Source: Gemmobacter aquarius (GTDB taxonomy: Bacteria; Pseudomonadota; Alphaproteobacteria; Rhodobacterales; Rhodobacteraceae). Taken from it: a DNA stretch of 64,000 nucleotides. The stretch lies in the NCBI RefSeq assembly GCF_003060865.1, contig NZ_CP028918.1:2530001-2594000 (forward strand). The letters are read 5' to 3'. Each line of letters begins with the position of its first letter. Positions within the stretch are counted from its first letter, which is position 1. The notes beneath the pieces are model-generated. The model had not been told where the DNA came from. It searched no databases and worked only from the letters and a program-made list of their open reading frames with translations. A program made the position numbers and the translations under genes. Of the stretch, positions 12,725 to 32,520 are shown one piece after another.

Positions 12725-12734
12725 CAGGCCTGCC

Positions 12735-12914
12735 TCATCCGCTCTTGTCTTCACCGTCACGCACGGCCCCGCCCTGATCCCCTTTGGCCCGCGCCTGCGC
12801 CTTGCGCCGCGCCATATTGGCCTTGAGCGCCGCCTTCAACCGCGCATCCCGCGACGACTTGGCTGTCACGCGCGGCGGTTTTCCGGTGCTGGTGTCCTCG
12901 GGTTCCGCGTTCAT
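12735..12914 (-). CDS. small basic hypothetical protein upstream of murA
   Basis: A 59-residue protein starting [20 protein letters not shown], with a central Lys/Arg/Ala-rich helix ([20 protein letters not shown]) and a polar tail. The stop is 10 bp before the murA start, which suggests co-transcription. The translation is cleanly read in one frame, with charged composition unlike antisense shadows. No domain is recognised; a nucleic-acid-binding role is possible from charge alone. Confidence 0.6.
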
Positions 12915-13092: not shown

Positions 13093-13167
13093 GCTGCAGT
13101 AGCTCAGTGGTAGAGCACTCCATTGGTAATGGAGAGGTCGAGAGTTCAATCCTCTCTTGCAGCACCA
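13093..13167 (+). tRNA. tRNA-Thr(GGT)
   Basis: A class I cloverleaf: acceptor GCTGCAG / TTGCAGC, D arm with AGCTCAGTGGTAGAGC, anticodon stem CTCCA/TGGAG enclosing TTGGTAA (anticodon GGT), T arm GAGAG-TTCAATC-CTCTC and an encoded CCA end at 13165-13167. Its 3' end is the integration site of the island to the right; the gene itself is intact because the inserted element restored the 3' sequence. Confidence 0.96.
13145..13167 (+). repeat. att site, left copy (tRNA-Thr 3' end)
   Basis: The last 23 bp of the tRNA gene, from the T loop through CCA, recur without mismatch at 31627-31649. This is the classic footprint of site-specific integration by a tyrosine recombinase into a tRNA gene. Confidence 0.9.
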
Positions 13168-13259
13168 CCTATCCCTTTGATCACAAAAGAAACCCTTGCA
13201 TCATTGGGCGACATCCCATTTCGATGTTACAAAGTTCGTTACAAAGTGCGTTGTGTGGC

Positions 13260-13826
13260 ATGACGAGGAAGGTGCTCTATCTGCTCGAGCGCGACGGCCG
13301 CTACTACGCCCGGATCGTTGTGCCACCACGCCTCCGACCCTTTCTCGAGAACAAGACCGAACTCAGAATGCCCCTCGGTGCGGACTATAGAGACGCGGTC
13401 AAAACGCTACATGCCGCTGTAGCAGAACTTCAATTCCGGCTCAGACAGGCCGAAATACGCGCGGCAGACAAAGGTGTGGTGGCGCCGCGGTCGCCTGCGT
13501 CGTTTCCCCTGTCTGACGAGCAAATGGCTCTCCGGCTCTACAGCATCCGCTTGGAACATGACCAGAAGCTCCGTCGCGCGACCTCTAGCTATGCATCCAT
13601 CAGCGTAGACGACCTTCAGATGTTTCGCCTGAAGCAGGGCTTGGCCGGGCAACTCTCCGATCCGGATCTGCTGGAACTCGTCGGCCAGCCGATCGAGTAT
13701 TTCCGCAATCGTGGCCACACATCCGTCGAGTTCGGAACTTCGGCATGGCGCAAGCTGGCGATGACCCTTTGCGTGGCTGAATACGAAGCCCTCGCACGGG
13801 TCGCCGAACGGGACGAAGGAGCGCCC
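13260..13826 (+). pseudogene. tyrosine integrase, N-terminal fragment
   Basis: Starting MTRKVLYLLERDGRYYARIV, this reads like the N-terminal DUF6538/SAM-like region of phage-type tyrosine recombinases (RYYARIVVPPRLRPF, then the ADYRDAVKTLHA helix). About 190 residues are present. The frame then passes into inverted IS66 sequence near 13827 and stops at 13877. The C-terminal catalytic domain with the R-H-R-Y residues is absent. It lies 92 bp inside the tRNA-Thr att site and was presumably the island's integrase. Confidence 0.75.
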
Positions 13827-14246
13827 GAGGCCATCGCGGTATTTGGCGATGTAGGCAACGGCCTCGCCCAAGGGTGACTTTGCTGATGCCCGGGCGCGGT
13901 GATGGACCAGCCAGTCGTCGATGCGGGCGAGGATCGGGGCGGAGCGGTCTTGCCGGACGGCCAGTCGGGCGTCGGGGTCGCTGTCGCGGATCTCGGCCTT
14001 GATGACATAGAGATTGCGGATGAGAGCCACGCCTGCCTCGGCAATCGGAGCGGGTTCGCCGCGGGTGATCTCGATCAGCTTGTGGCGCGCGTGCGCCCAA
14101 CAGTATCCGGGCTGGATGCCCAGACCGATCCGGTCCGCTGCAATCAGTCGGTTGTAGCCGGCATAGCCATCGACTTGCAGGATGCCGCCGAAGCCCTGCA
14201 ATATCCGCTCGGCATGTTGGCCCACGACAATCTTGCTGAGTCTCAA
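13827..14246 (-). pseudogene. IS66 family transposase (TnpC) fragment
   Basis: The minus-strand translation contains FGGILQVDGYAGYNRL, GYCWAHARHKLIEI and SPLGEAVAYIAKYRDGL, all hallmarks of the central IS66 transposase domain. About 140 of the usual 500 residues remain; the downstream end stops where integrase sequence begins, and the upstream end meets a stop near 14250. No terminal inverted repeats are identifiable. It interrupts the integrase. Confidence 0.8.
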
Positions 14247-14329
14247 GGGCTACGCTTCTGGCTTGTCAGGCCGCTCAGGTTGTATCGACCCAGTGAAGAT
14301 CTGCCCATGCGCCAAAGGAGCAGGTTGCG

Positions 14330-14441
14330 ATGCGTGTGACGATGGACAACAGCATCAAGCTTTGGACGGCGAAGCGTTAAGCGGCGCTGGTGGTCGAGAT
14401 AATCCAGGGCAAGACGACGATGGCAGGCTAACCGGGCCAAC
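14330..14441 (+). pseudogene. DUF1153-type transposase helix-turn-helix fragment
   Basis: The plus-strand reading from 14330 gives MRVTMDNSIKLWTAKR, stop, AALVVEIIQGKTTMAG, stop. This matches the start of the small HTH (DUF1153-like) protein of IS elements, which normally reads WTAKRKAALVxEIIQGKTT. Two in-frame stops and the short length show it is dead. It lies between the IS66 and IS3 remnants. Confidence 0.6.
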
Positions 14442-14770
14442 AGATGCACGACTGCTTCGCGCTTCGCGACTGGCGTCACCATTTCTTTGGCAGCGGATCG
14501 TTCTTCGCCGCCATGTCCAGAATTTGCTGGGCAAGCAGACGCTTCAGCTTGGCATTCCCGTCTTCAAGCGCCTTCAGCCGCTTGGCCTCGGACATCGTCA
14601 TCCCGGAATATTTCGCCTTCCGCGCATAGAACGTGCCTTCCGCCATCCTATGCTTGCGGCAAAGATCAGCACACTTCGCGCCTGCCTTATGCTTCTGCAA
14701 GATCCTAATGATCTGCGCTTCGGTTCGGATCGTTCGCTTCATCGTCCACCCCTTCCTTGGGGCAGCCTCT
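14430..14770 (-). mobile_element. IS3 family (IS407-type) remnant
   Basis: Contains the left end (a CCTTGGGGCAG-type terminal sequence near 14755-14767), a complete orfA and only the first 15 or so residues of orfB (MVTPVAKREAVVHL, from 14482), overlapping the orfA stop as in active IS407-type elements. After that the frame no longer resembles a DDE transposase and the right end is missing. The element cannot transpose. Confidence 0.75.
14476..14742 (-). CDS. IS3 family transposase OrfA
   Basis: An 88-residue protein starting MKRTIRTEAQIIRILQKHKA. ADLCRKHRMAEGTFYARKAKY is the HTH_Tnp_1 helix-turn-helix and SEAKRLKALEDGNAKLKRLLA is the leucine-zipper-like coiled coil, both typical of IS407-type OrfA. 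It ends LPKKW, as the family does. It binds IS ends together with the OrfAB fusion, but orfB is deleted here, so it is an orphan. Confidence 0.85.
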   Translation of the reverse strand: MKRTIRTEAQIIRILQKHKAGAKCADLCRKHRMAEGTFYARKAKYSGMTMSEAKRLKALEDGNAKLKRLLAQQILDMAAKNDPLPKKW

Positions 14771-15086
14771 CGTCGTTGATGGAGGAAAATCTCGAAGCAG
14801 GTCAGATCCGGTCCCAAGCAGCGTCAACCAAAAGCGCGCACTGTGTCCCTCCGTCACTCTATCGCTCGCAGTCGGCCCAAAGCGGACGGCTGAAGGACCC
14901 CGTGTTTAAATCCGGAGCAGCCGCTTCCGATGCACAAGCTTTGTTTCTTCGCGGCGAACCGGCGTTTATGGGTGTTCGTTCGTGGGAGTCAAAAAAATAT
15001 CTTGGCTTTGTCGAAATCCCGTTTGGTTGCGTGTCATCCTTTCAGAAGCCTCCGTCCCGGACGCTTCGGACAGATCGGAGGCACCC

Positions 15087-15524
15087 GTGTCCAGCACTTC
15101 CCTCTCCCTCCCGCGTCCGCCGCTCTGGTTCCATGCGGCCAGCATCGGCGGCATCGCGTGGAACGTCTTTGGCGCGGTCCAGTTCGCGGGGTCCGTCACG
15201 GCCACCGAAGCCAGCCTGATCGCCTCGGGCCTGACGGCTGAACAGGCGGCGGTAATGACCGGCTATCCGGGCTGGATGACCCTTGCCTTCGCCATCGGGG
15301 TGTTCGGCGGCCTCGCCGGAGGCGTGCTGTTGCTCCTGCGCCGGCGCATCGCCCTGCCGGTGCTTGCCGTCTCGCTGGTGGCCTATGTCGCGCTCTGGAC
15401 CGGGGATGCCGTCCATGGCGTCTTTGCGGCGATGGGCCTGCCGCAGGTCGTGACCCTGACCGTCGTCGTGGCCATCGCGGCCGCGCTCTTCCTGCTCGCT
15501 CGCCATCCGGCGGCGAGGGCCTGA
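15087..15524 (+). CDS. four-helix membrane protein, hypothetical
   Basis: A 145-residue protein. The GTG at 15087 is chosen because CGGAGG lies six bases upstream; longer readings start in IS-flanking sequence. Four hydrophobic segments are seen (about 15-32, 55-75, 80-98 and 112-132). LTAEQAAVMTGYPGWMTLAFAIGV lies between the first two. I recognise no named family. It precedes the YCII and sigma factor genes by 46 bp and is probably part of the same operon, possibly responding to the same stress. Confidence 0.75.
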   Translation: MSSTSLSLPRPPLWFHAASIGGIAWNVFGAVQFAGSVTATEASLIASGLTAEQAAVMTGYPGWMTLAFAIGVFGGLAGGVLLLLRRRIALPVLAVSLVAYVALWTGDAVHGVFAAMGLPQVVTLTVVVAIAAALFLLARHPAARA

Positions 15525-15570
15525 CTTTATCTTCCTTCGTGATAACCTGAAACCAAAAGGAGACCTCCCG

Positions 15571-15939
15571 ATGCAATTCATGCTCATTCTGACCGAAACA
15601 TCCCGAGACCACGCCCGCCGCAATGATCCGGCACAGGCGGGTGAGTATTGGGGCGGGTGGAGCGCCTTCATCGCCGCCATGGCGCAGGCCGGAATCGTCG
15701 TCAACGGCGACGGCCTGCAAGGACCGCACACTGCCACGACCCTGCGCGTCCGCGATGGCAAGCGGGTGGTCGAGGATGGTCCCTTTGCCGACACCAAAGA
15801 GCAGCTTGCCGGCTATTTCATTGTCGAGGCGCCCGATCTCGACACCGCGCTGGATTGGGCGGCAAAGGCTCCGTCGGCGCTCACCGCCGCGGTCGAGGTG
15901 CGCCCCGTGCTGCCGCCCATGCCCGCAACCGGGCAGTGA
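15571..15939 (+). CDS. YCII/DGPF domain protein
   Basis: A 122-residue protein starting MQFMLILTETSRDHARR after AAAAGGAG. VVEDGPFADTKEQLAGYFIVEAPDLDTALDWAAKAP is the DGPF/YCII signature (quoted in part: DGPFADTKE). Such proteins are the usual partners of group-42 ECF sigma factors. The stop codon overlaps the GTG start of the sigma gene, indicating coupling. The biochemical function is unproven; a ferredoxin-like fold with a conserved Asp/His pair is known for the family. Confidence 0.9.
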   Translation: MQFMLILTETSRDHARRNDPAQAGEYWGGWSAFIAAMAQAGIVVNGDGLQGPHTATTLRVRDGKRVVEDGPFADTKEQLAGYFIVEAPDLDTALDWAAKAPSALTAAVEVRPVLPPMPATGQ

Positions 15940-17174
15940 CAGGCCAGACCGGCCTGCAAAATGCCCGCCGGGCCGCCGAACTGGCGGCCCGCGCAAGCTA
16001 TGGCAGGCTCCTCTCGGTATTGGCCGCGCGCGACCGTGACATAGCCGCAGCCGAGGACGCGCTGTCCGAGGCACTACTGGCAGCACTACGGACATGGCCG
16101 GAAACCGGAGTGCCTCTGAACCCCGAAGGCTGGCTTGTGACAGCGGCCCGCAACCGGCGCAAGAACGAAGCGCGGGCACAGGCTGTGCGCCGCGCGGCAG
16201 AGCCCGCTCTGATCCTTCAGTTCGATACGACGGCGGCCGAAGGTCCGATCGGCGACGACCGGCTGCAACTGATGCTCGTCTGCGCCCATCCCGCGATCGA
16301 TCGGGCAGCGCGTGCGCCCCTGATCTTGCAGACCGTGCTAGGCCTTGACGCGGCGACCATCGCCCGCGCCTTTCTGGTCGAACCGGCAACGATGTCGCAG
16401 CGGCTGGTCCGGGCCAAGGCGCGCATCCGCGACGCCGGTCTGCGCTTTGCCATACCCGCGCCGGACGAGATGCCCGAACGTCTGGGCGCGGTGCTCGACG
16501 CCATATACGCAGCCTTCGGGCAGGGCTGGGACAACCTCGACACCCCCGACGCGCCCGAGGCGCTGACCGGCGAGGCGCTCTGGCTCGCCCGCTTGGTGGC
16601 TGACCTGATGCCGCAAGAACCTGAGCCGAAAGGGCTTTTGGCGCTGATGCTCTATTGCAACGCACGCCGCCAAGCCCGCCGCGATGCGGACGGGCGCTTC
16701 GTGCCGCTCGACCGGCAGGACACCCGCCTGTGGGACCGCAGCCGCATCATAGAGGCCGAGGGGCTGCTGACCACCGCCGCCCGCGCCGGCCGTTTCGGGC
16801 GCTATCAATGCGAGGCGGCGATCCAGTCGGTCCATGTCCAGCGCCCATTAACCGGGCAGCTGAATCTTGCGGCGCTGCGGACGCTCTATGACCTCTTGGT
16901 GTCGCAATCCGACAGCATCGGCGCAAGGATCAGCCGCGCCGTGGTGCTTGCAGAATTGGGCGAGGTCGACCAAGCGCGCAATGAACTTGATGCCTTGCCG
17001 ATGGACCGGGTGCGCAACCACGCCCCCTGGTGGGTGGCCAAAAGCCGCATCGCCACCCTTTCCCGACAGGCGAATGCTGCCACCGACGCCCTGTCGGTCG
17101 CCATATCGTTGACCGGTGACTCGGCAGTCAGAAGGTTTCTCATCGAACAACGCGAAGCGTTGGAAGCGGGTTGA
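15936..17174 (+). CDS. ECF sigma factor (ECF42-like, with C-terminal extension)
   Basis: A 412-residue protein starting at a GTG that overlaps the YCII stop. Sigma region 2 lies around 15-80 (AAEDALSEALLAALRTWPE, then NPEGWLVTAARNRR) and region 4 around 110-165 (ATIARAFLVEPATMSQRLVRAK). A long TPR-like C-terminal domain (about 185-410) is typical of ECF42 (DUF6596) factors, in which it replaces an anti-sigma factor as controller. The upstream YCII gene is the expected partner. Confidence 0.9.
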   Translation: MTGQTGLQNARRAAELAARASYGRLLSVLAARDRDIAAAEDALSEALLAALRTWPETGVPLNPEGWLVTAARNRRKNEARAQAVRRAAEPALILQFDTTAAEGPIGDDRLQLMLVCAHPAIDRAARAPLILQTVLGLDAATIARAFLVEPATMSQRLVRAKARIRDAGLRFAIPAPDEMPERLGAVLDAIYAAFGQGWDNLDTPDAPEALTGEALWLARLVADLMPQEPEPKGLLALMLYCNARRQARRDADGRFVPLDRQDTRLWDRSRIIEAEGLLTTAARAGRFGRYQCEAAIQSVHVQRPLTGQLNLAALRTLYDLLVSQSDSIGARISRAVVLAELGEVDQARNELDALPMDRVRNHAPWWVAKSRIATLSRQANAATDALSVAISLTGDSAVRRFLIEQREALEAG

Positions 17175-17368
17175 GGGCACGTTCGGCTGCCCTCGCTGGA
17201 AAGGCAACCTGAGCGACAGAAGTATCGCCCCAGAAAACACAATGCATGACCGCATTCCGCCCGTAGCAACTGGCGAGAACGTCACCCGTTTCCCACAAAT
17301 TCCCCATCGCCCCGCTCGCTATTCTTGAAGCATCGCACATCGACGTGCGATTGCATCAAGGAAACGAC

Positions 17369-17791
17369 ATGAGCACCACACCCTAAGCCGACAGCCGCCT
17401 CGCCAAATACATCGACCGGCGGATCAACGAGCTTCATCATAAGACCCAAGCCGAAATCGCCCGCGAGGCTGGTTTTCCGAATGCAAACTTCATTTCGATG
17501 CTCAAGACGGGCAACGCGAAGCTGGCGCTCGACAGGGTGCCTGCGTTCGCAAAGGCGCTCGAAGATGATCCGGCTGTGATCATGCGGCTTGCGATCGAGC
17601 AGACGCACGGCCTCGAAATGCTGAAGATGATTGCCGATCTTCTGAGTGAAAGCCTGACAGACAACGAGCGCGCCTGGCTCAAATTGATCCGCGAGTCATC
17701 GTCGAATACCGATCCCGCACCTGCTCGGACGATCACTCGGGTGTTGAAGCTCTTCCTGCATGACGTCGAAGCTGATCCGATAGCCAAGTAG
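17369..17791 (+). pseudogene. HTH DNA-binding protein interrupted by a stop at codon 6
   Basis: After GGAAACG, the ATG at 17369 gives MSTTP and then TAA (17384-17386). The same frame continues for 134 codons with a good HTH protein: KTQAEIAREAGFPNANFISML (helix-turn-helix) then GNAKLALDRVPAFAKALEDD and a helical C-terminus. No alternative start lies between the stop and the HTH; the ATG at 17498 would remove it. The sequence is otherwise undamaged, so this is a single nonsense change (GAA or CAA to TAA is likely) or an internal-start variant. A perfect terminator stem follows. Confidence 0.7.
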
Positions 17792-17810
17792 ACGATCATC
17801 GCTCTGCCAA

Positions 17811-17844
17811 CCCGACAGGACGGTGGTCGTGCGGTCCTGTCGGG
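17811..17844 (+). terminator. strong stem-loop after the HTH gene
   Basis: CCCGACAGGAC (17811-17821) pairs perfectly with GTCCTGTCGGG (17834-17844) around a 12-base loop, 20 bp after the HTH stop codon. Only a weak T run follows, but stem strength and position support a terminator. Confidence 0.7.
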
Positions 17845-18377
17845 TCTATCGAATCCCCGCGCCTGGAGCATAGCTGGCATCGAAACAGGTGCCATAATGG
17901 GGGTTACAGGCGCTGACATGGGGTGGTCAGAAAGCTGCCACCATGGTTGGTCCGAGGCTTCCACTCGCACCAAACACGGGTCTGCCAGTTGACGAAAAAG
18001 AAGAGTGAAAACCTCAAGCGATCAAGAAAACAAGGCGATTGATATCTTTCGACAACCATATGGTGCTGCACCGATTTTACGAGGATTTGTAAACCGGACA
18101 GCTATGCACCTATTGCAATGGTCCGTCAGATGAGACCGGCTTGGCTGGAGCTGATCGTTTGGTCCTCCCTCAGGGCGAACACGAGGAAGAGCGTGCATAG
18201 AAAGCTACATCGCTGGATGTGCACACACGTATTCCTTCCGATGTAGCTGAACGCGGATATGGCTTTCGGCGCAAATCCTGTTTCGCGGCCCTTGGCCTTG
18301 GTGCCGCCGAAACTCCCATCCGGGGTGCAGGCGCTTTCATCCCATAGGGTCTCACAGCATCACCCCGACGAGCGACA
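17845..18377. other. gene-free stretch before the distal end of the CRISPR array
   Basis: Nothing reads convincingly on either strand. GC content is lower around 17990-18120. The stretch 18317-18345 contains CATCC, GGGTGC and CGC in the order and rough spacing of the CRISPR repeat but with gaps; a decayed repeat is conceivable, not shown. Confidence 0.5.
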
Positions 18378-18406
18378 CCCAAGGGGAGATCGGATATGGG
18401 GAACGC
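18378..18406 (-). repeat. decayed distal CRISPR repeat
   Basis: The 29 bp ending GGGGAACGC at 18406 share 13 of the last 16 positions with the repeat, while the first half has diverged. The next 32 bases (18407-18438) end exactly at the first intact repeat, so the spacing equals one spacer. Degeneration of the leader-distal repeat is normal for CRISPR arrays. Confidence 0.7.
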
Positions 18407-18438
18407 GGGCGTTGGAGAAGATAGTGTCTTCTCCAGAC

Positions 18439-21400
18439 CGGTTCATCCCCGCGGGTGCGGGGAACGCCGCGAACCAGGCAACGATCCCGTCCCAGTTGTC
18501 GGTTCATCCCCGCGGGTGCGGGGAACGCTAGAAGTCAAGGCCAAGCGCATCGGCGGCAATCGGTTCATCCCCGCGGGTGCGGGGAACGCCGTGTCGAGTT
18601 CGGAAATAGCCGCCTCTGCTGCGGTTCATCCCCGCGGGTGCGGGGAACGCGTGAAGTGCGATAACGGTTGCATCGCTGGCCACGGTTCATCCCCGCGGGT
18701 GCGGGGAACGCCTGGGGCGGCATCCCGGCTGCGGTCTGTTTGCCGGTTCATCCCCGCGGGTGCGGGGAACGCGTCAGCTCGATTGCGCCGCCCTTGCGCT
18801 GCCCCGGTTCATCCCCGCGGGTGCGGGGAACGCCCCGCAAACCCGGGCGGCTTTCGTTTCCGCGTCGGTTCATCCCCGCGGGTGCGGGGAACGCCCAGTA
18901 ACTGCCGTTGAGGTAGTAGCGGGTTTCGGTTCATCCCCGCGGGTGCGGGGAACGCCGGCTGTGGGGCAGGGGGTGGCATGATGACCCCGGTTCATCCCCG
19001 CGGGTGCGGGGAACGCGTCAACTGCCAGACAGGGTTTTCGCCCTGCGCCGGTTCATCCCCGCGGGTGCGGGGAACGCGTCAACTGCCAGACAGGGTTTTC
19101 GCCCTGCGCCGGTTCATCCCCGCGGGTGCGGGGAACGCCCCCAGACCACCTAGCAGCCCCGCCCATGGCGCGGTTCATCCCCGCGGGTGCGGGGAACGCA
19201 TCGTCAGCGACACGCCCAGACGCTGGGCGACCGGTTCATCCCCGCGGGTGCGGGGAACGCCGCATTCGCTTAACGCCGTTGGGGTTTGGTTCCGGTTCAT
19301 CCCCGCGGGTGCGGGGAACGCACGGCCAAAGTGCGGGTGAACGGCATTGCGGGCGGTTCATCCCCGCGGGTGCGGGGAACGCGATAAGCTGGGCGTCTAC
19401 GCGTCCTCGATGTTCGGTTCATCCCCGCGGGTGCGGGGAACGCTCCGGTCTGCGCATGAAGTCATTGGCGCGGACCGGTTCATCCCCGCGGGTGCGGGGA
19501 ACGCTGATAGGTGCCTGTGCCGTCATGCGTTGCCCCCGGTTCATCCCCGCGGGTGCGGGGAACGCATCTGCCCCTGCGCCATTTTGGAAACCGTGCCCGG
19601 TTCATCCCCGCGGGTGCGGGGAACGCAGGTGCAACCACCGATCAGACCCCCGGTAAAGCGGTTCATCCCCGCGGGTGCGGGGAACGCGTTTTCAGTTCCG
19701 CCACACATTCCGCCTTTGACGGTTCATCCCCGCGGGTGCGGGGAACGCCTGTTTTGGTCTGGACCAAAGCGCCGCATATCCGGTTCATCCCCGCGGGTGC
19801 GGGGAACGCGGCGGGAACGGCATCGCCGCCCCCGCCCATGGCGGTTCATCCCCGCGGGTGCGGGGAACGCTTATCCCGAACGGCTTTGTCCGCCGCCGTT
19901 TCCGGTTCATCCCCGCGGGTGCGGGGAACGCGAGACCGGGCACCATGCGCTTGAGATCAAGACCGGTTCATCCCCGCGGGTGCGGGGAACGCGCCACGTT
20001 CACACTCGAGCTAAAGGCCGTCACCGGTTCATCCCCGCGGGTGCGGGGAACGCCGTCCGGCCATGGCGTCTACCGCGGTGGCGATCGGTTCATCCCCGCG
20101 GGTGCGGGGAACGCAAGTGGCTGCCGATGCGCCGGCAAGCCCCCGGCGGTTCATCCCCGCGGGTGCGGGGAACGCAATTGAGAGAGTTGAGATTGCCGAG
20201 CCTGAATCGGTTCATCCCCGCGGGTGCGGGGAACGCGTGCGGCCACAAGCCCCAATCAAGACGAATTTCCGGTTCATCCCCGCGGGTGCGGGGAACGCAT
20301 CTGGGCGCTGGCGATGAACAGCACGGCGTCCGGTTCATCCCCGCGGGTGCGGGGAACGCTTGGGATTGAAGCGTTTACGGAGCAGATCAGGCGGTTCATC
20401 CCCGCGGGTGCGGGGAACGCGGCGATGCCGACCAGTTGACGACCATGCGGGCCGGTTCATCCCCGCGGGTGCGGGGAACGCGGCGGCTTCGGCTTCGGTT
20501 GCGTTCGCCTTGGCGGTTCATCCCCGCGGGTGCGGGGAACGCGTGCCGGAAATCACCTGGTCGATCGACGGGTCCGGTTCATCCCCGCGGGTGCGGGGAA
20601 CGCATGGGACACTGGGCGTTCTGCGCCCCAGTGGACGGTTCATCCCCGCGGGTGCGGGGAACGCGCCGTTGCCGAAGCCATGGCCAAGGCCAAGGCCGGT
20701 TCATCCCCGCGGGTGCGGGGAACGCGCGTGGAGGGTCTGAGATGTCATTCCTTGCCCCGGTTCATCCCCGCGGGTGCGGGGAACGCGTCCGAAGCCCTAC
20801 CTCGATTGCCGAGGTCAACGGTTCATCCCCGCGGGTGCGGGGAACGCAGGCCGCACGTCCGGCCATCGCGCTCAGCAGGCGGTTCATCCCCGCGGGTGCG
20901 GGGAACGCCGCCTCGCCCGCGTTCACATCAGGACGATAGGCGGTTCATCCCCGCGGGTGCGGGGAACGCCAGCGCGATGATCGTCAGACCCAGATCGACA
21001 CCGGTTCATCCCCGCGGGTGCGGGGAACGCTCCTCAGCCTCGCCGTGCGTGGCTGCGCGGTCCGGTTCATCCCCGCGGGTGCGGGGAACGCTATCACTAC
21101 GAGCACGATGTCGAGATCGAATTCGGTTCATCCCCGCGGGTGCGGGGAACGCCAGGCATCAGCGCCACGGTCGCTTGCGTGTCGCGGTTCATCCCCGCGG
21201 GTGCGGGGAACGCGCGGTGCGCGCCAGCACGATGATATCGGCCTCCGGTTCATCCCCGCGGGTGCGGGGAACGCCGGCAACCCGTCATCGATCCCCAGCG
21301 CAAGTCCGGTTCATCCCCGCGGGTGCGGGGAACGCCATCCAGCGCACGGGAGACGCGAGCCGCATTGCGGTTCATCCCCGCGGGTGCGGGGAACGCTGGC

Positions 21401-22372
21401 TCTGGCCGGAAATGTTCGGCGACAAGGCCGGTTCATCCCCGCGGGTGCGGGGAACGCGCCGAAAGAGAACATCGAGGCGTTGCTGACGTCGGTTCATCCC
21501 CGCGGGTGCGGGGAACGCGGCGATTCCGACAGGGTCACCGCGACCAGCGCCGGTTCATCCCCGCGGGTGCGGGGAACGCCAGGATAGATCAACGCCGGCA
21601 GCGCAGGCTGCCGGTTCATCCCCGCGGGTGCGGGGAACGCACATCCCCGACCGACGCATCCCAGCACGACAGCGGTTCATCCCCGCGGGTGCGGGGAACG
21701 CCTCAGCACCACCAGGCGCGACAGATCCTGCGACGGTTCATCCCCGCGGGTGCGGGGAACGCACGATCGTCAACCATAGCGCATCGACCGCCAGCGGTTC
21801 ATCCCCGCGGGTGCGGGGAACGCCGCTTACCCGGTCCAGAAGTTCAACGATGATGCGGTTCATCCCCGCGGGTGCGGGGAACGCTCGGGCGAGTTGTTGT
21901 CGGCGACGAAATCAACCGGTTCATCCCCGCGGGTGCGGGGAACGCATCGCGGCCTTGGTCTGGTCGAAGCGGTGCCTCGGTTCATCCCCGCGGGTGCGGG
22001 GAACGCCCGCTGGGGTGTGTGGCAATGAACCTGCCCTGCGGTTCATCCCCGCGGGTGCGGGGAACGCTCGGCGAATGGCTGAAGGCCAACGCCGCCGCCC
22101 GGTTCATCCCCGCGGGTGCGGGGAACGCCGTGATCTCGATCAGGCAGTTGGCGGTAATCTCGGTTCATCCCCGCGGGTGCGGGGAACGCGGCGCGCCTCG
22201 ATCATCAGACCAGCACCCAATCGGTTCATCCCCGCGGGTGCGGGGAACGCACATCCCCGACCGACGCATCCCAGCACGACAGCGGTTCATCCCCGCGGGT
22301 GCGGGGAACGCTTTCAGCGGCCGGATCAGATCGCCGTTATAGGCGGTTCATCCCCGCGGGTGCGGGGAACGC
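18439..22372 (-). CRISPR. type I-E CRISPR array: 65 repeats, 64 spacers
   Basis: A 29-bp repeat (plus strand starts CGGTTCATCCCCGCGGGTGC and ends GGGGAACGC) recurs every 61 bp with apparently no variation. One period is 62 (spacer 20237-20269 has 33 bases), all others 32. The repeat is the reverse complement of the GAGTTCCCC...ATAAACCG type used by I-E systems, so crRNA is read from the minus strand: stem CCCCGC-ACCC-GCGGGG and 8-base handle ATGAACCG. The leader therefore lies at the high-coordinate end, next to cas2. Spacers 19017-19048 and 19078-19109 are identical, as are 21641-21672 and 22251-22282. Confidence 0.98.
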
Positions 22373-22431
22373 TCTTCGTGTAGGGCATTGATGCACCACG
22401 GTTTTCACGATGTCAAAGAGCGCACCGATTT
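22373..22431 (-). promoter_or_regulatory. CRISPR leader, at most 59 bp
   Basis: The only sequence between the cas2 stop codon (22432-22434) and the leader-proximal repeat (22344-22372). It is less GC-rich than its surroundings. Being so short, any separate crRNA promoter must overlap the 3' end of cas2, or the array is read through from the cas operon. Confidence 0.7.
22381..22393 (-). promoter_or_regulatory. IHF-like site in the CRISPR leader
   Basis: On the minus strand CATCAATGCCCTA matches the IHF consensus WATCAANNNNTTR at all but two defined positions. It lies 9-21 bp from the first repeat. In the E. coli I-E system IHF binds at that distance and bends the leader for Cas1-Cas2 integration. 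Confidence 0.5.
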
Positions 22432-23659
<1,228 letters not shown>

Positions 23660-23663
<4 letters not shown>

Positions 23664-24378
23664 GCGCGCCGGATCAACATCAGGCCGCAGCCGTAAGACT
23701 TGGCTCGGCCAAACCCCTGCATCACGCAGTCGAGGAACAGGGCGGGGTCCGCGACTTCGAGACGTCCGGAGAGATCGAGGATGCCGAACTGCGGCTTCTT
23801 CTTCGGGTTCCGGTTTCCGGGCAAGGCGACGGTGGAGTAATCGGCAACTTCGGCACCGATCAGACGGAAACCTGAACGCGCGCCGAGGCCGGACAGCCAG
23901 TCGGTCGCGGCGGCCTGCGCCAGCTCCATTCTTTGCTCGGGGCGGGCGCTGCGCTCGCCTTTGGGCAGGTTCGACTGGCCGGTGACCCCATTCAGACGGT
24001 CCATCACCAGATCGATATGGCGTTTTTGTTCTTTGCCCGTTGCGGAAACTGTCCCCTTCTTTTCCGTCCGCGTGGCGTTGGCGCGTAGCGCGAAGGTCAA
24101 CCGATCACCCTGCCCCAGCGCGGGAGCGAAGGGCTTGACCTCGGGCCGTTCGAACAGCTCCGACTCCTGCGGCGGACGGGCCGAAAGGGTCAGGAACACC
24201 CCCTCGCCTTCCGCGCGCCAAAGAAAATCGCGCTGCCGGTCCGGGCCGTCGGTGAAGACCGCCCAGAGCAGACGGTGGTGGGCATCCAACCGACGCCCAT
24301 GGTCTTCGGGATTCAAGAGCGCCCCGAGCGCGCGGGCCGAGGGCGACCGCGACAGTTTCAGGCGCGAGAGATAGAGCG

Positions 24379-24382
<4 letters not shown>
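23660..24382 (-). CDS. cas6e: crRNA-processing endoribonuclease Cas6e (CasE)
   Basis: A 240-residue protein starting MTLYLSRLKLSRSPSARAL. The N-terminal ferredoxin-like domain has DAHHRLLWAVF, with the catalytic-type His of Cas6e, and the C-terminal GFGRAKSYGCGLM loop is the glycine-rich G-loop of RAMP proteins. It cuts the repeat at the base of its hairpin and stays in Cascade. The ATG at 24382 overlaps the cas5 stop. Confidence 0.96.
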
Positions 24383-26649
<2,267 letters not shown>

Positions 26650-26653
<4 letters not shown>

Positions 26654-28119
26654 GCTGCCTTGCCCTTTTTTGCCGGTTTTTCCATGCCAAGGCGGGTGAA
26701 CAATTCCCCGCCCGCCTTGCCGTAACCCTTGAAGGTTACCCCGAGATAACCCCGTGCCTGAACCACGCGGGCGATCTGGTCGGTTTCGCGCTGGTCCAGC
26801 CCCTGCAACGCCAGATCGTCGAACTGGCTGAGGGCATGGCGCTGAAGGTGACCCAGCCATTGCACTGCCACTTCGGCAGGTGCCGAGCCGGACTTCAACG
26901 CGTCAAAGCAGGTCAGAAAGTCGGCTTCCGTTCGAAGGTAGAATGCCTCGCGCTCTGCCTCGCGCGCCTCACCGCCCGCTAGAACCGGTTCCAACGCGCC
27001 GCGCAACGCCAAGGCGGCCTGTTCCGCAGCAAGGATCATGCCCTGCACCATCACCAATGCGACAGGCGGCAGATCGACGTAGGGTTGGGAGGACAGGGTG
27101 AAATCGCGGGCCTTCATGTTGTCCATCGCCCAACCGGCAACCAGCACGGAGACCTGCGCCCTGCGATCCCGGCTTTGCCACGCCGTCAGACAAGCCGCGC
27201 AGTCGCGCAGGCCATCGGCCGATCCGGCAAGGATGCCGAGCCAATGGCGATAGCCGAAAAGACCGGCGCGGGGGTGGACGGGCAGCAGCTCTTCGCCCGC
27301 CTTCATGCGGTAATAGGGGGTCAAGGGGTGGACCCAGCCGCCGTAATTGGTGCCAAAGGGGCGCTGGACCACGCCCGTCACACCCGCGCCATCCGCCACG
27401 AGCCGCAGACGGCGCGGCATTCCAAAGAACGCCTCGACCCCGAAACTTCGCCCCTCGGGCGGATGGGTCACCGCGCCCTTGTCGGATACACGGGTCGCCC
27501 GCATCCACGGCAGATCTATCATCTGGCCGGGCACACCGTCGGGCACATTGGCCCAGACCATATCCCAAAGCCCGCGCCCCGGATCGACCAGCGTCACCAG
27601 CGGCCCGCCCCCCCGGATCGAGGTCCGGTTGCCTGCCCCGCCCGCCGGCGCATGGGCCTGAAAGGTGTAAAGCGCCATCGCGGCCAAGGCCGGATCGAGC
27701 GCGGTGTAACGGTCACGGTGGACCATCAGATCGGCATTGTTGCGGGCGGTATTGGTCCCAGCGCTGTCGATGAACAGCATGTCCGCGGGGTTCGCGTCTC
27801 CCTCCAGCGGATCAAGGTCTTGCAGGAACAGCGGCCCCTCGCCCAGCAGGTTGAAGGCGGGGGCATAGGCGGCCAGCCGAAGGCGCAGACGGGCCGGATC
27901 GGGTTTGCGGCGGTCGTCCCAGTCTTCGACATGGGCGGGCGGATCGGCCAGATAGACCAACCCGATCAGCAATTCCAGACAGGCAAGGTTCAAATCAGCC
28001 CGCGGCCAATCGGGCCGGATCACATCACTGTCGGCCATCTGCCACGGCGCGATCACACGGCGCGATCCGTCTTTCAGGATGACTGGAATCCAAGGATCGT
28101 CAATCAAGTTCAGGGACAA
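26650..28119 (-). CDS. cse1: Cascade large subunit Cse1 (CasA)
   Basis: A 489-residue protein. MSLNLIDDPWIPV (TTG start at 28119) matches the family N-terminus and has GGAGG eight bases upstream; GTG at 28125 or 28170 are alternatives. NLLGEGPLFLQDLDP and the AGGAGNRTSIRGGGPLVTLV region correspond to loops used for PAM recognition and Cas3 recruitment. The C-terminal four-helix bundle lies after about 370. It is 155 bp from cas3 and begins the run of overlapping genes. Confidence 0.95.
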
Positions 28120-28197
28120 GCACACGTCCTCCACACAATCTATAGGTGCAAGAAACCAAGCTTGCGGCACTCTGTAAAGCGACTAAATATCCCGTCA

Positions 28198-28214
28198 GTG
28201 ACAGATTCAGTCAC
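28198..28214. promoter_or_regulatory. inverted repeat between cas3 and cse1
   Basis: GTGAC-AGATTCA-GTCAC, a 5-bp perfect dyad, lies in the 155-bp gap before the Cascade genes. That gap is the only sizeable one in the cas locus, so a second promoter here is likely. The dyad could be an operator; this is inference only. Confidence 0.3.
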
Positions 28215-28274
28215 CCTGCGGGGTGGTCAGGTCATTTTTTTCGCTGGGCATCACATTTCAGATTGATCTGCCCG

Positions 28275-30740
28275 TCAGGCGAACCGAAGCCCGAAACCCG
28301 CACTGTAGCTTAATCCGTCACAGATCGTGCCATCGTCCGCGACGGGGCAGATCGTGACGCTGTCGCGGCGCCAGTCCGGCCAATCTTTCTTGGCCGCCGC
28401 TATGGCGGGATGCGCCTGATCCGGCAAAGGCAGCGCATCCAGACGGGATTTGCGTGCCGAAACCTCGGCCATCGGCCATGATCCACCCCATGGTGTAACG
28501 CGACCGTCCCTTATCTGAGCAAGGGCAAGCGTGCGGCTCGCCTCACCAAGACGCGTCGGGTAATCGGCGTCTCGTCCATCCCCGCTGCCTTCGCGGTAGG
28601 ACTTGCTCAGGTCGATCCGGTTTTGCCAAGCGTGCGACTTGTGGGCCATCGCCTTGCCCTCGGCCTCGCGGTCCGCCTTTTCAAGCGGCGATGGAACATC
28701 GGCGGCTTCGGGTCCGTGAACCGTCTCGATCAGGCCGCGCAAGCCTGACGGTGCGACGATCTGGCCCACGGAAAACAGGTGCTTGGCCGTGCGCCATTGC
28801 AGCCCCTGCGGATAGGTATAGGCGCCCTTGTCCAGCACCCGCATCAGCCATTGCCCATCGGTTACTTGGGCCGGATCGGGCGATAGGACGTGCAGCACGG
28901 GTGCTGGCACAGGACGCGCAACGGCGGGCCGTTGCGCCATGTGCCGCCACAGACGGCCCGCGCGCTGGATCAGCCCAGCCATGGGCGCAAGGTCGCTGAC
29001 CATCACGTCAAAATCAAGGTCGAGGGAACTTTCCAGAATTTGCGTGCCGACAAGCACACGGCCCGCGCGTCCCTGTCCCGTCTTGCCGAACCGTGACAGG
29101 GTGGCCTGTTCGATCCGCTTTCGATCCGTCAAGGCAAAGCGCGCGTGCAGCAGGTCGGCTTCTATTCCTGCCGAACGCAATGCCTGAACCGCCGCAATGG
29201 CATCATCCACCGCGTTGCGGACCCAGACACAGGCCGCCCCGCCCCGCGCCAGATCGGTCAGCAGGGAAATTACCGCCCCGGCGTCGGGCAGGCGTTCCAC
29301 ACGAACCGGCCCCCTTGCCCCGGTTTCCTGAGGCAGATCCCGTCGCGCGGCACCGCCCGCAATCGCCAGGGCCGGATAGGCAGGGTCGTCCTCGCCGCCG
29401 CCGTATGTCGCCATCAGCTTTTTGCGCAACGCCAAGGGAAGCGTGGCCGTCAGCAGGATCGCCGATCCCCCCGCCTGCCGGTGCAGGTGCAAAAGCCGCT
29501 CCAGCACCTCGGCGATGTAGGGTTCGCCGAGTTCGTGGACCTCATCGACGATCAGAATCTTCGAGGACAGGGCGAAATGGCGCAGGGTGTGGAACTTGGT
29601 CGGCAAAGCCGCCAGCAGGGCCTGATCGATGGTGCCGACCCCGACATCGCCCAGCAGCGCCTTTCGCCGCCCATCGGCCAGCCAAGCCGTGCAAGACGGG
29701 TCTTCCGGCGCGTTTTCCTGCGCGTCGATCAGATCACGAAATTCATCCGACAGCCCTGCCTTGCCATGCGCGAGCGTCAGCATCGGCGGGGCGTCGAACA
29801 AGCGGCCGATGACGCCCTCATGTTTCAGCCGGTTGAACATCGCGTCCGATGTGGCCGTGGTGGGCAGGGCCACGAACAGCCCGCGCCCCTTGCCCGCGCA
29901 AAGCATACGCTGTGCGAGGATCAGCGCCGCCTCGGTCTTGCCCGCGCCGGTTTCATCTTCGATGACCGCAAGCATCGGCCCATCCGGCAAGGATATCTCA
30001 GCACATGCCGATTGCATCGGCCGCAGGTCGAACCCGAACAGCCGATCAGCTTTTGGCCCGACTCCGGCAAGACCGGCCTTTTGCACGGCAACCCCAGCTT
30101 TTGCACGCGCCCGTGTCAGGTATTGGGCCAAGGGCATCACGCTTCCCTCGGCAGGAAACCAATCGGGGTTCGATCCGACCCAATCCGCCGCCGACACCAG
30201 CCCGGGCAGCCACCACGACAGCGCCAACGCCTCTTCGCGCGAGACCGCCTCCAATGACGCCACAGGCCAAAGGTCAAGAAAGGCCGCAATGACGGCGCGC
30301 GCATCACGAACGGCCTCGGCGCCGGTTACCGAAAGCACATGATCGTCGTTGCCGGTCCATTTCGACGGTTGGCCATGATGCCCCGCCACCGCCGCGTAGA
30401 GTGGTTCGCGTCGCAACCGTTTCGATCCAAGGCGTCCGGCCAGAACATCGTCATGCGCGTTCAACAGGACTTCGGTCACACACCAATGCGAATTCGACTG
30501 GTAAGGCTGCCCCCGCAGCATCTTGCGAAACTGATCGTTCACCTTGCCCAGATCGTGCAACGCGGTCAGCAGCACAAGCGCATCACGCAGAGCGGCGTTG
30601 AAACCGAAGCGGGCAATCAGGATTTCGGCCACAGCGGCCACGTCAAGCATGTGGTAGACGGCAGAGTGTTCGGGATCGTTAGGGGTCGCGGGGCTTTTGC
30701 CCGGCCATGACAGGAGTTTTTCCAATAACAGACACCTCAT
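28275..30740 (-). CDS. cas3: CRISPR-associated helicase-nuclease Cas3
   Basis: An 821-residue protein. The N-terminal HD nuclease domain has HSAVYHMLDVA, TALHDLGK, AGHHGQP and SAADWVGS. The SF2 helicase follows with DETGAGKTEAAL (Walker A), ILIVDEVHEL (DExH box), LLTATLP (motif III) and QRAGRLWR (motif VI). The C-terminal domain lies after about 650. It unwinds and degrades target DNA after Cascade recruitment. The ATG at 30740 puts the HD motif at the usual distance. Confidence 0.97.
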   Translation of the reverse strand: MRCLLLEKLLSWPGKSPATPNDPEHSAVYHMLDVAAVAEILIARFGFNAALRDALVLLTALHDLGKVNDQFRKMLRGQPYQSNSHWCVTEVLLNAHDDVLAGRLGSKRLRREPLYAAVAGHHGQPSKWTGNDDHVLSVTGAEAVRDARAVIAAFLDLWPVASLEAVSREEALALSWWLPGLVSAADWVGSNPDWFPAEGSVMPLAQYLTRARAKAGVAVQKAGLAGVGPKADRLFGFDLRPMQSACAEISLPDGPMLAVIEDETGAGKTEAALILAQRMLCAGKGRGLFVALPTTATSDAMFNRLKHEGVIGRLFDAPPMLTLAHGKAGLSDEFRDLIDAQENAPEDPSCTAWLADGRRKALLGDVGVGTIDQALLAALPTKFHTLRHFALSSKILIVDEVHELGEPYIAEVLERLLHLHRQAGGSAILLTATLPLALRKKLMATYGGGEDDPAYPALAIAGGAARRDLPQETGARGPVRVERLPDAGAVISLLTDLARGGAACVWVRNAVDDAIAAVQALRSAGIEADLLHARFALTDRKRIEQATLSRFGKTGQGRAGRVLVGTQILESSLDLDFDVMVSDLAPMAGLIQRAGRLWRHMAQRPAVARPVPAPVLHVLSPDPAQVTDGQWLMRVLDKGAYTYPQGLQWRTAKHLFSVGQIVAPSGLRGLIETVHGPEAADVPSPLEKADREAEGKAMAHKSHAWQNRIDLSKSYREGSGDGRDADYPTRLGEASRTLALAQIRDGRVTPWGGSWPMAEVSARKSRLDALPLPDQAHPAIAAAKKDWPDWRRDSVTICPVADDGTICDGLSYSAGFGLRFA

Positions 30741-30879
30741 TCACAAAAGGCTTGCGGCACGCAAGCGCGCACCCCTGTCATGCCTGCCGATATTCCAAAC
30801 GTGACCGTCGTTCAGTGGTGCCCTTTAGTCAAACCACACTTCGAAGAATGCTTGATCAAAATACCGCAAGGATTGCCGA

Positions 30880-31338
30880 CGCTATAGAAAGCCGTCCTTT
30901 CCTTCGACCTGCAGTCTACCGCGAACCGGTAATCTCGCGGTAGAACGCCTCATGCACCCATGCGATGAAGGCGGCGTCAGTTGGCGACGCGAGGCGATCC
31001 TCGCGATATCTCCAGTAGATCTCGCGCTGCACGATGACTTGCGCCCGAGCTTCTAGTGCAAAGGCGCGCGTTTCTTCAGCATGTTCTGCTCCTGCCAGCG
31101 ACGCCTAGACGTAGCGCGGGCGAATGTTATGCCCTTAGATCGGGTTCGCGTAGTGACACTTCATGACGCGGAAGAGGTCCACCAACTCGGTGACGCTGTC
31201 TGGATGGAGACCACGGCCGAGAGCATCAGCCGCGCGTTGCTGCTCGACCGCAAGGTCAGCAAGCTTCGCCGGAACCCGTTCTTCGAACAGGCACGGCTCG
31301 ATGCGTCCGGGTGTTTCGATCCCTTTATCGATACTTAA
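30880..31338 (-). pseudogene. Fic family protein, decayed N-terminal part
   Basis: Reading the minus strand from 31338 gives SIDKGIETPGRIEPCLFEER, then LADLAVEQQRAADALGRGLH, VMKCHYANPI, stop (31135-31137), GHNIRPRYV, stop (31105-31107), ASLAGAEHAEET, ALEARAQVIVQREI and AAFIAWVHEAFYREITGSR, stop at 30916; a shift then gives LQVEGKDGFL. This follows the N-terminal region of Fic AMP-transferases (normally NLIEGHNTRPRDIE). The catalytic HPFxDGNGR motif is absent. Both internal stops replace expected Glu codons. Confidence 0.7.
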
Positions 31339-31626
31339 TCTCCTCTAAATCGCTGATCTTTAAATGAAAAACGTGCTGAAACGAAGGAAATCATCGATAT
31401 CTTGTTTCGATCTTCGTGCCCGCACCTGACTGACACCAGCTCGACAAAGCGAAGCTTCCGAAATCAAGCGCCGAAACAGTATCGAAACTGCGTTGACGAC
31501 AGCGCCTTCCCCCGTAATTCTGCGGCACAACAGCCAATTACGGTGAAGTTTCTTGCTCAGATTAACGTCCGTCACAATGTTACAAAACCACACCTAAGTT
31601 ATTGATTTGTTTGATGTATGATGGAA

Positions 31627-31649
31627 TTCAATCCTCTCTTGCAGCACCA
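31627..31649 (+). repeat. att site, right copy
   Basis: An exact 23-bp copy of the tRNA-Thr 3' end, including the CCA, with no tRNA around it. It marks the right junction of the island. The preceding base differs from the tRNA copy (A instead of G), which sets the left limit of identity. Confidence 0.9.
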
Positions 31650-31739
31650 TAAAACCCCTTGATTTCATATAAGCATTTGGTCCTAATGGATTTGTGCCGC
31701 CCCCACTAGTGCATATGGGTGGTGCAGATGAGACATGCC

Positions 31740-31820
31740 ATGCCTAATCCTGAACCGATCAACGGGACGTACTACCTGCGTCTCCATGTCCCCCGCGACA
31801 TTGCAAAGGTAGCGTCGTAG
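31740..31820 (+). pseudogene. second tyrosine integrase, 26-residue stub
   Basis: The reading MPNPEPINGTYYLRLHVPRD, then IAKVAS and a stop, matches the opening of DUF6538-type tyrosine integrases (a G-x-YYLRLxVP motif). It lies 90 bp after the right att copy, the same position and orientation that the island integrase has after the left copy. The rest of the gene is gone. It differs in sequence from the first integrase. Confidence 0.55.
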
Positions 31821-31904
31821 ACGATGCCGAAGACCGTCAGGGCGGGCTAGGTTGTGCGACCTGCGCTGCGGATCGGGGTCATGCGATGGCCTTCGATCGG
31901 CCAG

Positions 31905-32270: not shown

Positions 32271-32520
32271 CAACGGATGAACCGCATTCGTTCGGGAACG
32301 GCGCGTTGCGAGCGGCCGATACCGCCGCTACGTGCCAAGTCGGTCAACAGCCAGGTGCGAGCCAGACACTGCAGCCTCTGACCGACAAAGACCCAACGAT
32401 GAACGGTTCAGGCGGTATCCGCCGCGCCGCCTGCCCAAAGCTTGCGTGCCAACCAGATACAAAAAGGGTAAATGCGCTCTGGAGAATGGCCACCAGCGGT
32501 AATTTCGCGCTCCTCAAGGT

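What the first reader, a model, noticed from the sequence alone, without database searches (positions are those of the whole stretch)
13145..31649. Complete type I-E CRISPR-Cas system on a tRNA-Thr integrative island
An exact 23-bp copy of the tRNA-Thr 3' end at 31627-31649 defines an 18.5-kb island with an integrase relic at the expected inner edge. All eight cas genes are open and the 65-repeat array looks uniform, while integrase, transposases, HTH and Fic cargo are broken. This suggests selection kept the immune system after the island lost mobility, and that I-E immunity arrived here by site-specific integration rather than by descent.
Basis: partly seen in the sequence, partly recalled or inferred. 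Interest (0 to 1): 0.75.

Follow-up and report, generated by a model that had tools for sequence, protein, structure and literature searches.

The report
CRISPR-Cas on a decayed tRNA island
A complete bacterial immune system sits in a worn-out mobile element plugged into the end of a tRNA gene, and relatives in the same bacterial group often carry the same kind of immune system next to other tRNA genes, which suggests that it spreads by docking there.

Summary
The 23-bp repeat (13145-13167, 31627-31649) has two copies in the whole genome at up to 3 mismatches; all eight type I-E cas genes are open; the array has 65 identical repeats; the integrase beside the tRNA is truncated.

Seventeen of 18 genus-mates could be read at this tRNA-Thr. 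In three (two of them near-identical) DNA like the window's right flank abuts the tRNA, so the cas island inserted between tRNA and flank. That flank is itself an integrase relic, not core genome.

Two inferences fail or stay open. An open sigma-factor operon also survives. In two genus-mates with I-E, synonymous divergence of cas matches that of core genes: old residence in the genus, or exchange within it, fits better than a distant donor.

Beyond the window, I-E loci of this group sit at tRNA 3' ends more often than chance. Within 6 kb of cas, 19 tRNAs face it and 1 faces away (81 loci, window excluded). Six loci, window included, have a far-side repeat of the tRNA 3' part; the other five carry an open-frame integrase.

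Single cases are published (Vibrio, Paracoccus yeei). The window is a new member of a known kind; the recurrence may be new.

The parts
13093..13167 (+). tRNA-Thr (GGT), integration target; its last 23 nt are the left copy of the repeat
   Evidence: ARAGORN; beside aroA in the 17 genus-mates with an aroA hit
13145..13167 (+). left copy of the 23-bp direct repeat (attL)
13260..13877 (+). truncated DUF6538-type tyrosine recombinase (N-terminal part only; start approximate)
   Evidence: Pfam DUF6538 E=2.6e-5, below cut-off; full-length relative at the same tRNA in G002
13407..14246 (-). partial IS66 transposase overlapping the end of the integrase frame
   Evidence: Pfam DDE_Tnp_IS66, profile 116-245 of 284
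14476..14817 (-). transposase HTH fragment (HTH_Tnp_1)
15082..17174 (+). open cargo: small membrane protein, YCII-like protein, sigma factor with DUF6596
   Evidence: open frames; Pfam for the sigma factor; the other two names recalled
17370..17791 (+). HTH regulator relic with an early stop; open relative behind tRNA-Thr in G002
   Evidence: family name recalled
18398..18438 (-). array trailer: half repeat and a 32-nt unit that contains an inverted repeat
   Evidence: read from sequence
18439..22372 (-). CRISPR array, 65 identical 29-nt repeats, 64 spacers of 32-33 nt
22373..22431 (-). 59-bp gap between array and cas2, the probable leader
   Evidence: leader role inferred
22432..22719 (-). 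cas2 (I-E)
   Evidence: TIGR01873
22716..23663 (-). cas1 (I-E)
   Evidence: TIGR03638
23660..24376 (-). cas6/casE; start chosen by match, open frame begins at 24445
   Evidence: TIGR01907
24379..25068 (-). cas5/casD
   Evidence: TIGR01868
25065..26150 (-). cas7/casC; start chosen by match, open frame begins at 26318
   Evidence: TIGR01869
26156..26620 (-). cse2/casB; start chosen by match, open frame begins at 26860
   Evidence: TIGR02548
26650..28170 (-). cse1/casA/cas8e
   Evidence: TIGR02547
28275..30740 (-). cas3 (HD nuclease plus helicase)
   Evidence: TIGR01587, TIGR01596
30890..31340 (-). Fic-like relic with stops
   Evidence: frames; family recalled, no call hit it
31627..31649 (+). 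right copy of the 23-bp direct repeat (attR)
31650..31810 (+). relic that looks like the start of an older, different integrase; relatives of it follow tRNA-Thr directly in G013, G018 and G007
   Evidence: integrase nature recalled from its sequence, no call hit it

Best explanation
This is an immobile integrative element at tRNA-Thr(GGT). A DUF6538-type tyrosine recombinase integrated it into the tRNA 3' end, between the tRNA and an older relic, leaving a 23-bp repeat. It carried, or later received, a complete type I-E CRISPR-Cas cassette, a regulator and a sigma-factor operon. The integrase was later truncated where IS66 debris now lies, fixing the island. The cas operon presumably works as ordinary I-E immunity: Cas1-Cas2 add spacers at the cas2-proximal end, Cas6 processes the transcript, Cascade finds targets and Cas3 cuts. 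More widely, I-E cassettes of Rhodobacteraceae and neighbouring Alphaproteobacteria repeatedly ride such elements to the 3' ends of different tRNA genes. Shown: att repeats, cas-less junctions in relatives, integrase truncation, purifying selection between genus-mates, excess of facing tRNAs. Inferred: the act of integration, the order of events, present activity, and whether this cassette came with the island or was captured.
For: Two-copy exact repeat. Right-flank-like DNA joined to tRNA-Thr in G013 and in the near-identical pair G018/G007. Full-length integrase of the same start plus related HTH gene at the same tRNA in G002. The tRNA is a hotspot: downstream DNA differs among most of the 17 genus-mates read, 2 of 17 show a second copy of the tRNA 3' end at about 9 kb, and restriction-modification genes sit there in G013, G010 and G017 and by inference G011. 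cas dN/dS 0.02-0.25. Wider set: within 6 kb of cas, 19 tRNAs facing and 1 away in 81 loci without the window, p = 4e-5; 18 and 0 in 67 alphaproteobacterial loci. Within 3 kb, 16 tRNAs (15 facing) against 3.2 expected from 20 other stretches of the same genomes. Far-side repeats of the tRNA 3' part with an open-frame integrase beside one end in L004, L017, L052, G081 and L036.
Against: Cas synonymous divergence from genus-mates equals that of core genes, so nothing shows a distant donor. Similarity to G011 covers only array to cas3 (18439-30743) and nothing else of the island; in G011 the cassette's cas3 side adjoins the core gene hom, which in this genome lies 1.8 Mb away. So cassette and island may have separate histories. 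17 of the 30 alphaproteobacterial loci with at least 2.5 kb left and 5 kb right flank have no facing tRNA within 6 kb. The window's own tRNA is 5.3 kb from the array. A filtered-out tRNA call (L038, 101 nt, no CCA) faces away at 1.3 kb; with it the count is 19 to 2. No test of expression or activity.
Confidence: 0.8

Rival explanations
1. The I-E cassette has been inherited vertically in the genus, lost in most members, and was moved inside this genome into an island that already stood at tRNA-Thr. The island did not deliver it.
For: Synonymous divergence of cas parallels core: window-G011 0.52 against 0.56, window-G009 0.79 against 0.85, G009-G011 0.83 against 0.76. Window, L002 and L003 group in the Cas1 tree, support 91, unstarred. 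The similarity to G011 covers only 18439-30743. In G011 the cassette stands beside the core gene hom.
Against: Only 3 of 19 genus genomes carry Cse1, which needs many losses. The order of relatedness is mixed: in the Cas1 tree the window is sister to G009, and cse2 and cas6 are nearer to G009 at synonymous sites, while the other six cas genes and the core are nearer to G011, which fits exchange rather than pure descent. The sisters' sites cannot be fully read: G011's contig starts 124 bp before its array and G009's starts about one spacer before it. Sister I-E loci elsewhere use different tRNAs, for example L012 Glu and L015 Leu.
Confidence: 0.35
2. The tRNA association is only the general preference of genomic islands for tRNA genes; I-E is ordinary cargo without any special link.
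For: At this tRNA-Thr genus-mates carry restriction-modification and other cargo instead. In E. coli 18 of 41 defence hotspots lie in tRNA loci (PMC10121019, passages seen).
Against: It does not compete with site-specific integration; it only lowers the special claim. No comparison with other cargo or other CRISPR types was made here.
Confidence: 0.55
3. The 23-bp repeat is a chance or unrelated tRNA fragment and the cas locus is a stable part of the chromosome.
For: The right flank is not core genome and the region is rearranged relative to relatives.
Against: Exact 23 bp ending at the tRNA 3' end, none in shuffles, integrase relic at the inner edge, and tRNA-adjacent relatives of the right flank in cas-less genus-mates.
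Confidence: 0.03

Closest known systems
GI-24 of Vibrio cholerae (17-kb island with type I-E; PMC6360697, passages seen)
   Same: I-E operon plus array on an integrase-bearing island with att sites; similar size; shown there to excise
   Different: In the passages seen it lies between VC0289 and VC0290, no tRNA is named, and it has an integrase that acts; here tRNA-Thr and a truncated integrase; different cas gene order
Type I-E locus of Paracoccus yeei CCUG 32053 (PMC6209633, passages seen)
   Same: Related bacterium, I-E system between two tRNA genes; the same place holds a prophage or an integrase gene in other strains
   Different: No att repeats reported in the passages seen; single case
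Defence islands at E. coli integration hotspots (PMC10121019, passages seen)
   Same: tRNA-located hotspots with alternating defence cargo, as at this tRNA-Thr
   Different: There the I-E locus itself is described as part of the core genome, not on a mobile element
Type I-E CRISPR-Cas as in E. coli K-12 (recalled)
   Same: Gene order cas3-cse1-cse2-cas7-cas5-cas6-cas1-cas2, 29-nt repeat of the same kind, 32-nt spacers
   Different: Island location; own repeat loop and array

Membership tests
Type I-E CRISPR-Cas | Signature cse1 and cse2 with cas3, cas5, cas6, cas7, cas1, cas2 | tested here: met
   all eight hit; cas3 passes core and HD domain models but not PRK09694
Type I-E CRISPR-Cas | About 29-nt palindromic repeat and 32-nt spacers next to cas2 | tested here: met
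   29 nt, 63 of 64 spacers are 32 nt
Type I-E CRISPR-Cas | AAG-like PAM and working interference | tested here: inconclusive
   one phage dnaN match with AGG at the PAM place, 28 of 30 bases in the aligned part, 28 of 32 over the spacer, E = 0.1; 5 other spacer patterns without hit
tRNA-targeted integrative element | Direct repeat of the tRNA 3' end on both sides | tested here: met
tRNA-targeted integrative element | Own integrase next to an att site | tested here: met
   present but truncated
tRNA-targeted integrative element | Site without the island in relatives | tested here: met
   G013 and the near-identical pair G018/G007: homologous flank directly after the tRNA, over about 110 bp only
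Mobile (excisable) island | Excision or transfer | not testable with these tools
   integrase truncated, so not expected from its own enzyme
CRISPR-associated transposon | tnsABC and tniQ with a reduced cascade lacking cas1, cas2, cas3 (recalled) | tested here: not met
   cas1, cas2 and cas3 are present; the island ORFs scanned gave only IS66 and HTH_Tnp_1 transposase fragments; no direct search for tns genes

The most novel reading that the evidence does not exclude
In Rhodobacteraceae and related Alphaproteobacteria, type I-E CRISPR-Cas is mainly a circulating cargo of tRNA-docking integrative elements. Several integrase types (DUF6538-type, the arm-domain P4-like type, others) have each carried it to the 3' ends of many tRNA genes (14 tRNA types in this sample, the window's included); most of the vehicles' integrases then vanish and the immune locus stays, so that a tRNA facing the cassette is the lasting footprint.
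Probability: 0.55. Interest if true: 0.62.

Novelty: new member of a known kind. Interest (0 to 1): 0.48.

Why it matters
It gives a concrete carrier for the patchy spread of a familiar CRISPR-Cas subtype in one bacterial group, and a simple footprint (a tRNA whose 3' end faces the cassette) by which the route can be tested across genomes. It also shows an immune locus that outlived the mobility of its vehicle.

Tried and rejected
Tried: (1) a fully empty tRNA-Thr site at core genome. None usable: downstream DNA differs among most genus-mates read, and the DNA shared after tRNA-Thr by G001, G007, G018 and G014 has in this genome only a 656-bp, 74% match elsewhere; 7.2 kb after tRNA-Thr in G013 has no match here at E 1e-20. 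(2) Core right of 31650: synteny with G011 resumes at about 37.4 kb; that DNA lies about 206 kb (G005), 238 kb (G007) and about 2 Mb (G002) from aroA, so a rearrangement separates the flanks. (3) Protospacers: the array against phages gave one credible short match (E = 0.1), to a conserved motif of a phage beta-clamp gene, besides two matches that look like repeats of other arrays; near search of plasmids none; six spacer patterns in viral contigs gave hits for that one only, 3 contigs; no strong self-target in the capped list. (4) An integrase profile from DUF6538-type relatives found only the window and L058, so ten single frames were scanned with Pfam.

Dropped before counts: 3 tRNA calls inside arrays or cas genes, and 5 without CCA end or T-loop motif (2 facing, 3 away, of the away ones L038 at 1.3 kb). 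L022 was left out of some counts as near-duplicate of L019. The 81 loci are the best 80 of 96 Cas1 matches plus G081. A first table (46 loci) had left out L053, the one tRNA facing away within 6 kb; one search put it back. The 13 loci titled otherwise than Alphaproteobacteria or without class gave 0 facing and 1 away within 6 kb, too few to judge. Core frames c1 and c7 look like wrong reading frames and inflate core dN; aroA alone gives dS 0.73 (G011) and 0.83 (G009).

Considered and rejected: CRISPR-associated transposon; relic cas; chance repeat.
Full report
What is there. The window lies on a 3.69-Mb contig of a 4.2-Mb genome; the nearest named I-E relatives are Rhodobacteraceae. aroA (11453-12760, -) is followed by tRNA-Thr(GGT) at 13093-13167 (+). 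The last 23 nt of this tRNA recur exactly at 31627-31649. The window has no third copy at up to 3 mismatches, shuffles give none, and the whole genome has only these two. Between them lie a truncated integrase, an IS66 and an HTH_Tnp_1 fragment, open frames for a membrane protein, a YCII-like protein and a sigma factor with Sigma70_r2 and DUF6596 domains, an HTH relic, the CRISPR array (65 identical repeats, 64 spacers, 62 distinct), eight cas genes and a Fic-like relic (family recalled). So 'everything but cas is broken' is too strong.

Was the island inserted here? The window's genome and the 17 of 18 genus-mates with an aroA hit keep tRNA-Thr beside aroA (G015 had no aroA match). I read the DNA behind tRNA-Thr in these 17, for two of them only 0.8 and 2.4 kb. 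It differs among most of them. Exceptions: G018/G007 (98% over 17.6 kb), G010/G017 (85% over 3.7 kb), G011/G013 (88% over 1.8 kb), and G001/G007/G018/G014, which share DNA further downstream. So the site is a hotspot. Two of 17 show a second copy of the tRNA 3' end, at 9.4 kb (G011) and 9.1 kb (G017). Of nine frames from nine genus-mates scanned there, four are tyrosine recombinases (G011, G010, G002, G017; G010 by its DUF6538 domain, its integrase domain being under the cut-off) and one is a type ISP restriction-modification enzyme (G013). Type I methylase and specificity subunits are at the site in G010 and a type II methylase in G017; a second type ISP enzyme is inferred for G011, because two of 74 proteins matched and its DNA aligns to that of G013. 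Twenty proteins of seven genus-mates were scanned one by one against PADLOC; the other 16 gave no hit. The G002 element carries a full-length relative of the window's truncated integrase and a relative of its HTH gene; it has no Cse1.

I compared the first 110 bp right of 31649 with the DNA directly behind tRNA-Thr in 15 of the 17 genus-mates. G013 and G018 beat all 300 shuffles and G007 had 1 of 300 as good; G018 and G007 are near-identical, so this is two cases. G002 also beat all 300, but there the DNA is its own integrase leader. The other 11 gave 7 to 225 of 300. The shuffles keep single-base composition only. The stretch looks like the start of another integrase, now a relic in the window (recalled, no family hit). 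So the cas island entered between the tRNA and an older relic: tandem accretion. The right flank is not core: beyond it lie a stretch like an ABC ATPase (recalled; matches in seven genus-mates) and usher-type pilus genes. Synteny with G011 resumes at about 37.4 kb, in G005, G007 and G002 about 206 kb, 238 kb and 2 Mb from aroA.

Descent or transfer? Cse1 occurs in 3 of 19 genus genomes and 6 of 101 genomes searched, 5 of them over the family cut-off. G011 and G009 have the cassette at 78-83% DNA identity, on contigs other than their aroA contig. In G011 its cas3 side adjoins the core gene hom, which has a match in all 19 genus genomes and in this genome lies at 0.745 Mb, 1.8 Mb from the island; no tRNA was found on that side in 43 kb. 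The array sides end with their contigs. For G009, 18 kb behind tRNA-Thr hold no cas. So G011 has it elsewhere; G009's site is unresolved. Eight cas genes give dS 0.52 (window-G011), 0.79 (window-G009) and 0.83 (G009-G011); core genes give 0.56, 0.85 and 0.76 (14 core genes with G011, 7 with G009; some core frames are doubtful; aroA alone 0.73 and 0.83). Against simple descent: cse2 and cas6 are nearer to G009 at synonymous sites (0.38 against 0.54; 0.85 against 0.99), the pooled dN is lower to G009 (0.054 against 0.062), and the Cas1 tree puts the window with G009 (support 91), then G011 (91), neither starred. So the cassette has roughly the age of the genus and has probably been exchanged within it; a distant donor has no support. 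The window and G011 arrays share 0 of G011's 128 spacers by exact match; each of the three arrays has its own repeat, differing in the hairpin loop (in G011 one of 129 repeats varies, in G009 only 5 repeats are on the contig). dN/dS of the cas genes is 0.02-0.25, measured between genus-mates.

A wider pattern. A tRNA scan of 44 of the named I-E loci suggested that tRNAs near I-E loci point at them. I asked for 41 of the 80 loci to be extended; 40 gained up to 18 kb per side. The count runs over all 80 plus G081 and the window, keeping tRNAs with CCA end and T-loop motif. Without the window, within 6 kb: 19 facing, 1 away (81 loci, p = 4e-5); with a doubtful call that the filter dropped, 19 to 2. 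In 67 alphaproteobacterial loci without the near-duplicate L022: 18 facing, 0 away. At all distances without the window: 25 facing, 3 away. In the 67, facing density falls from 7.9 per 100 kb at 0-1 kb to 0.3 at 10-28 kb. Twenty other 20-kb stretches, one from each of 20 of these genomes on the cas contig, hold 4 tRNAs in 400 kb; within 3 kb of cas there are 16 (15 facing) against 3.2 expected. Fourteen tRNA types are used, the window's included; eight loci have the tRNA 161-720 bp from cas3 or the array, not counting L022. Of 30 alphaproteobacterial loci with at least 2.5 kb left and 5 kb right flank, 13 have a facing tRNA within 6 kb and 17 do not.

Island ends. I searched the far side of cas for a copy of the tRNA 3' end for 28 facing tRNA calls, two of which were later dropped as false. 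Six loci have a convincing one: window 23 bp, 18.5 kb; L004 (Thioclava) 16 bp, 18.1 kb; L017 (Thetidibacter) 14 bp, 26.7 kb; L052 (Yoonia) 14 bp, 19.0 kb; G081 16 bp, 15.2 kb; L036 (Celeribacter) 20 bp exact within a copy of the 3' part of tRNA-Cys, 21.3 kb. Control stretches of the same loci reached at most 9-17 bp; for L017 the control also reached 14, so this case rests on ending exactly at the tRNA end and on the integrase beside it. L004, L017, L052 and G081 have an open-frame integrase with arm domain (P4-like is my name for it) within 200 bp of the far repeat; L036 has an integrase next to the tRNA; L041 has one between array and tRNA-Gly without a found repeat. In L058 a 22-bp copy of tRNA-Ser's 3' end lies about 570 bp before cas3, a tandem case like the window. 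For the other facing tRNAs no far repeat beyond control was found; for many the contig ends too early to see the far side.

Literature. Searches of the held library found single precedents: Vibrio GI-24, a 17-kb I-E island with att sites that excises, and other CRISPR types at tRNA sites in Vibrio (PMC6360697, passages), and Paracoccus yeei with I-E between two tRNA genes (PMC6209633, passages). E. coli defence hotspots are often tRNA loci, though its I-E locus is called core (PMC10121019, passages). The listings of these searches showed no paper titled or abstracted as a recurrent tRNA link of I-E in this group; that is a statement about these searches only.

Verdict. The finding is real. The locus is an I-E system on a fixed tRNA-Thr island: a known kind of thing. 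The recurrence across the group is the part worth following.

Noticed in passing
L002-L081, G081: tRNAs near alphaproteobacterial I-E loci almost always face the cas locus (18 facing, 0 away within 6 kb without the window and L022), over many tRNA types.
   Followed up: yes
window 31650-32230 and 37439 onward: Second integrase-like relic and an ABC ATPase-like remnant right of the island; synteny resumes at about 37.4 kb and that DNA is far from aroA in relatives: a chromosomal rearrangement next to the island.
   Followed up: partly
window 18439-22372; L137; L138: The three genus-mates' arrays differ in the repeat's hairpin loop although Cas1 is 96-97% identical; G011's array has 129 repeats, 128 of them identical.
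   Followed up: no
window 18895-18926: Spacer matching a beta-clamp gene of a Paracoccus phage, 28 of 30 aligned bases, with AGG at the PAM place; three viral contigs carry close variants.
   Followed up: partly
window 15082-17174: Open sigma-factor operon (DUF6596 sigma factor with a YCII-like protein) on the island.
   Followed up: no
window 18391-18438: The array trailer ends in a half repeat after a 32-nt unit that contains an inverted repeat, possibly a terminator.
   Followed up: no
window 32408-36839: Accessory chaperone-usher pilus genes (SCPU, usher, PapD) right of the island.
   Followed up: no
L137 1-124: In G011 the array's far end stops 124 bp from the contig start; the G011 cassette stands beside the core gene hom.
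   Followed up: partly
G004: A genus-mate assembly of about 1.5 Mb listed as 96% complete, far smaller than its 3.2-4.7 Mb relatives.
   Followed up: no
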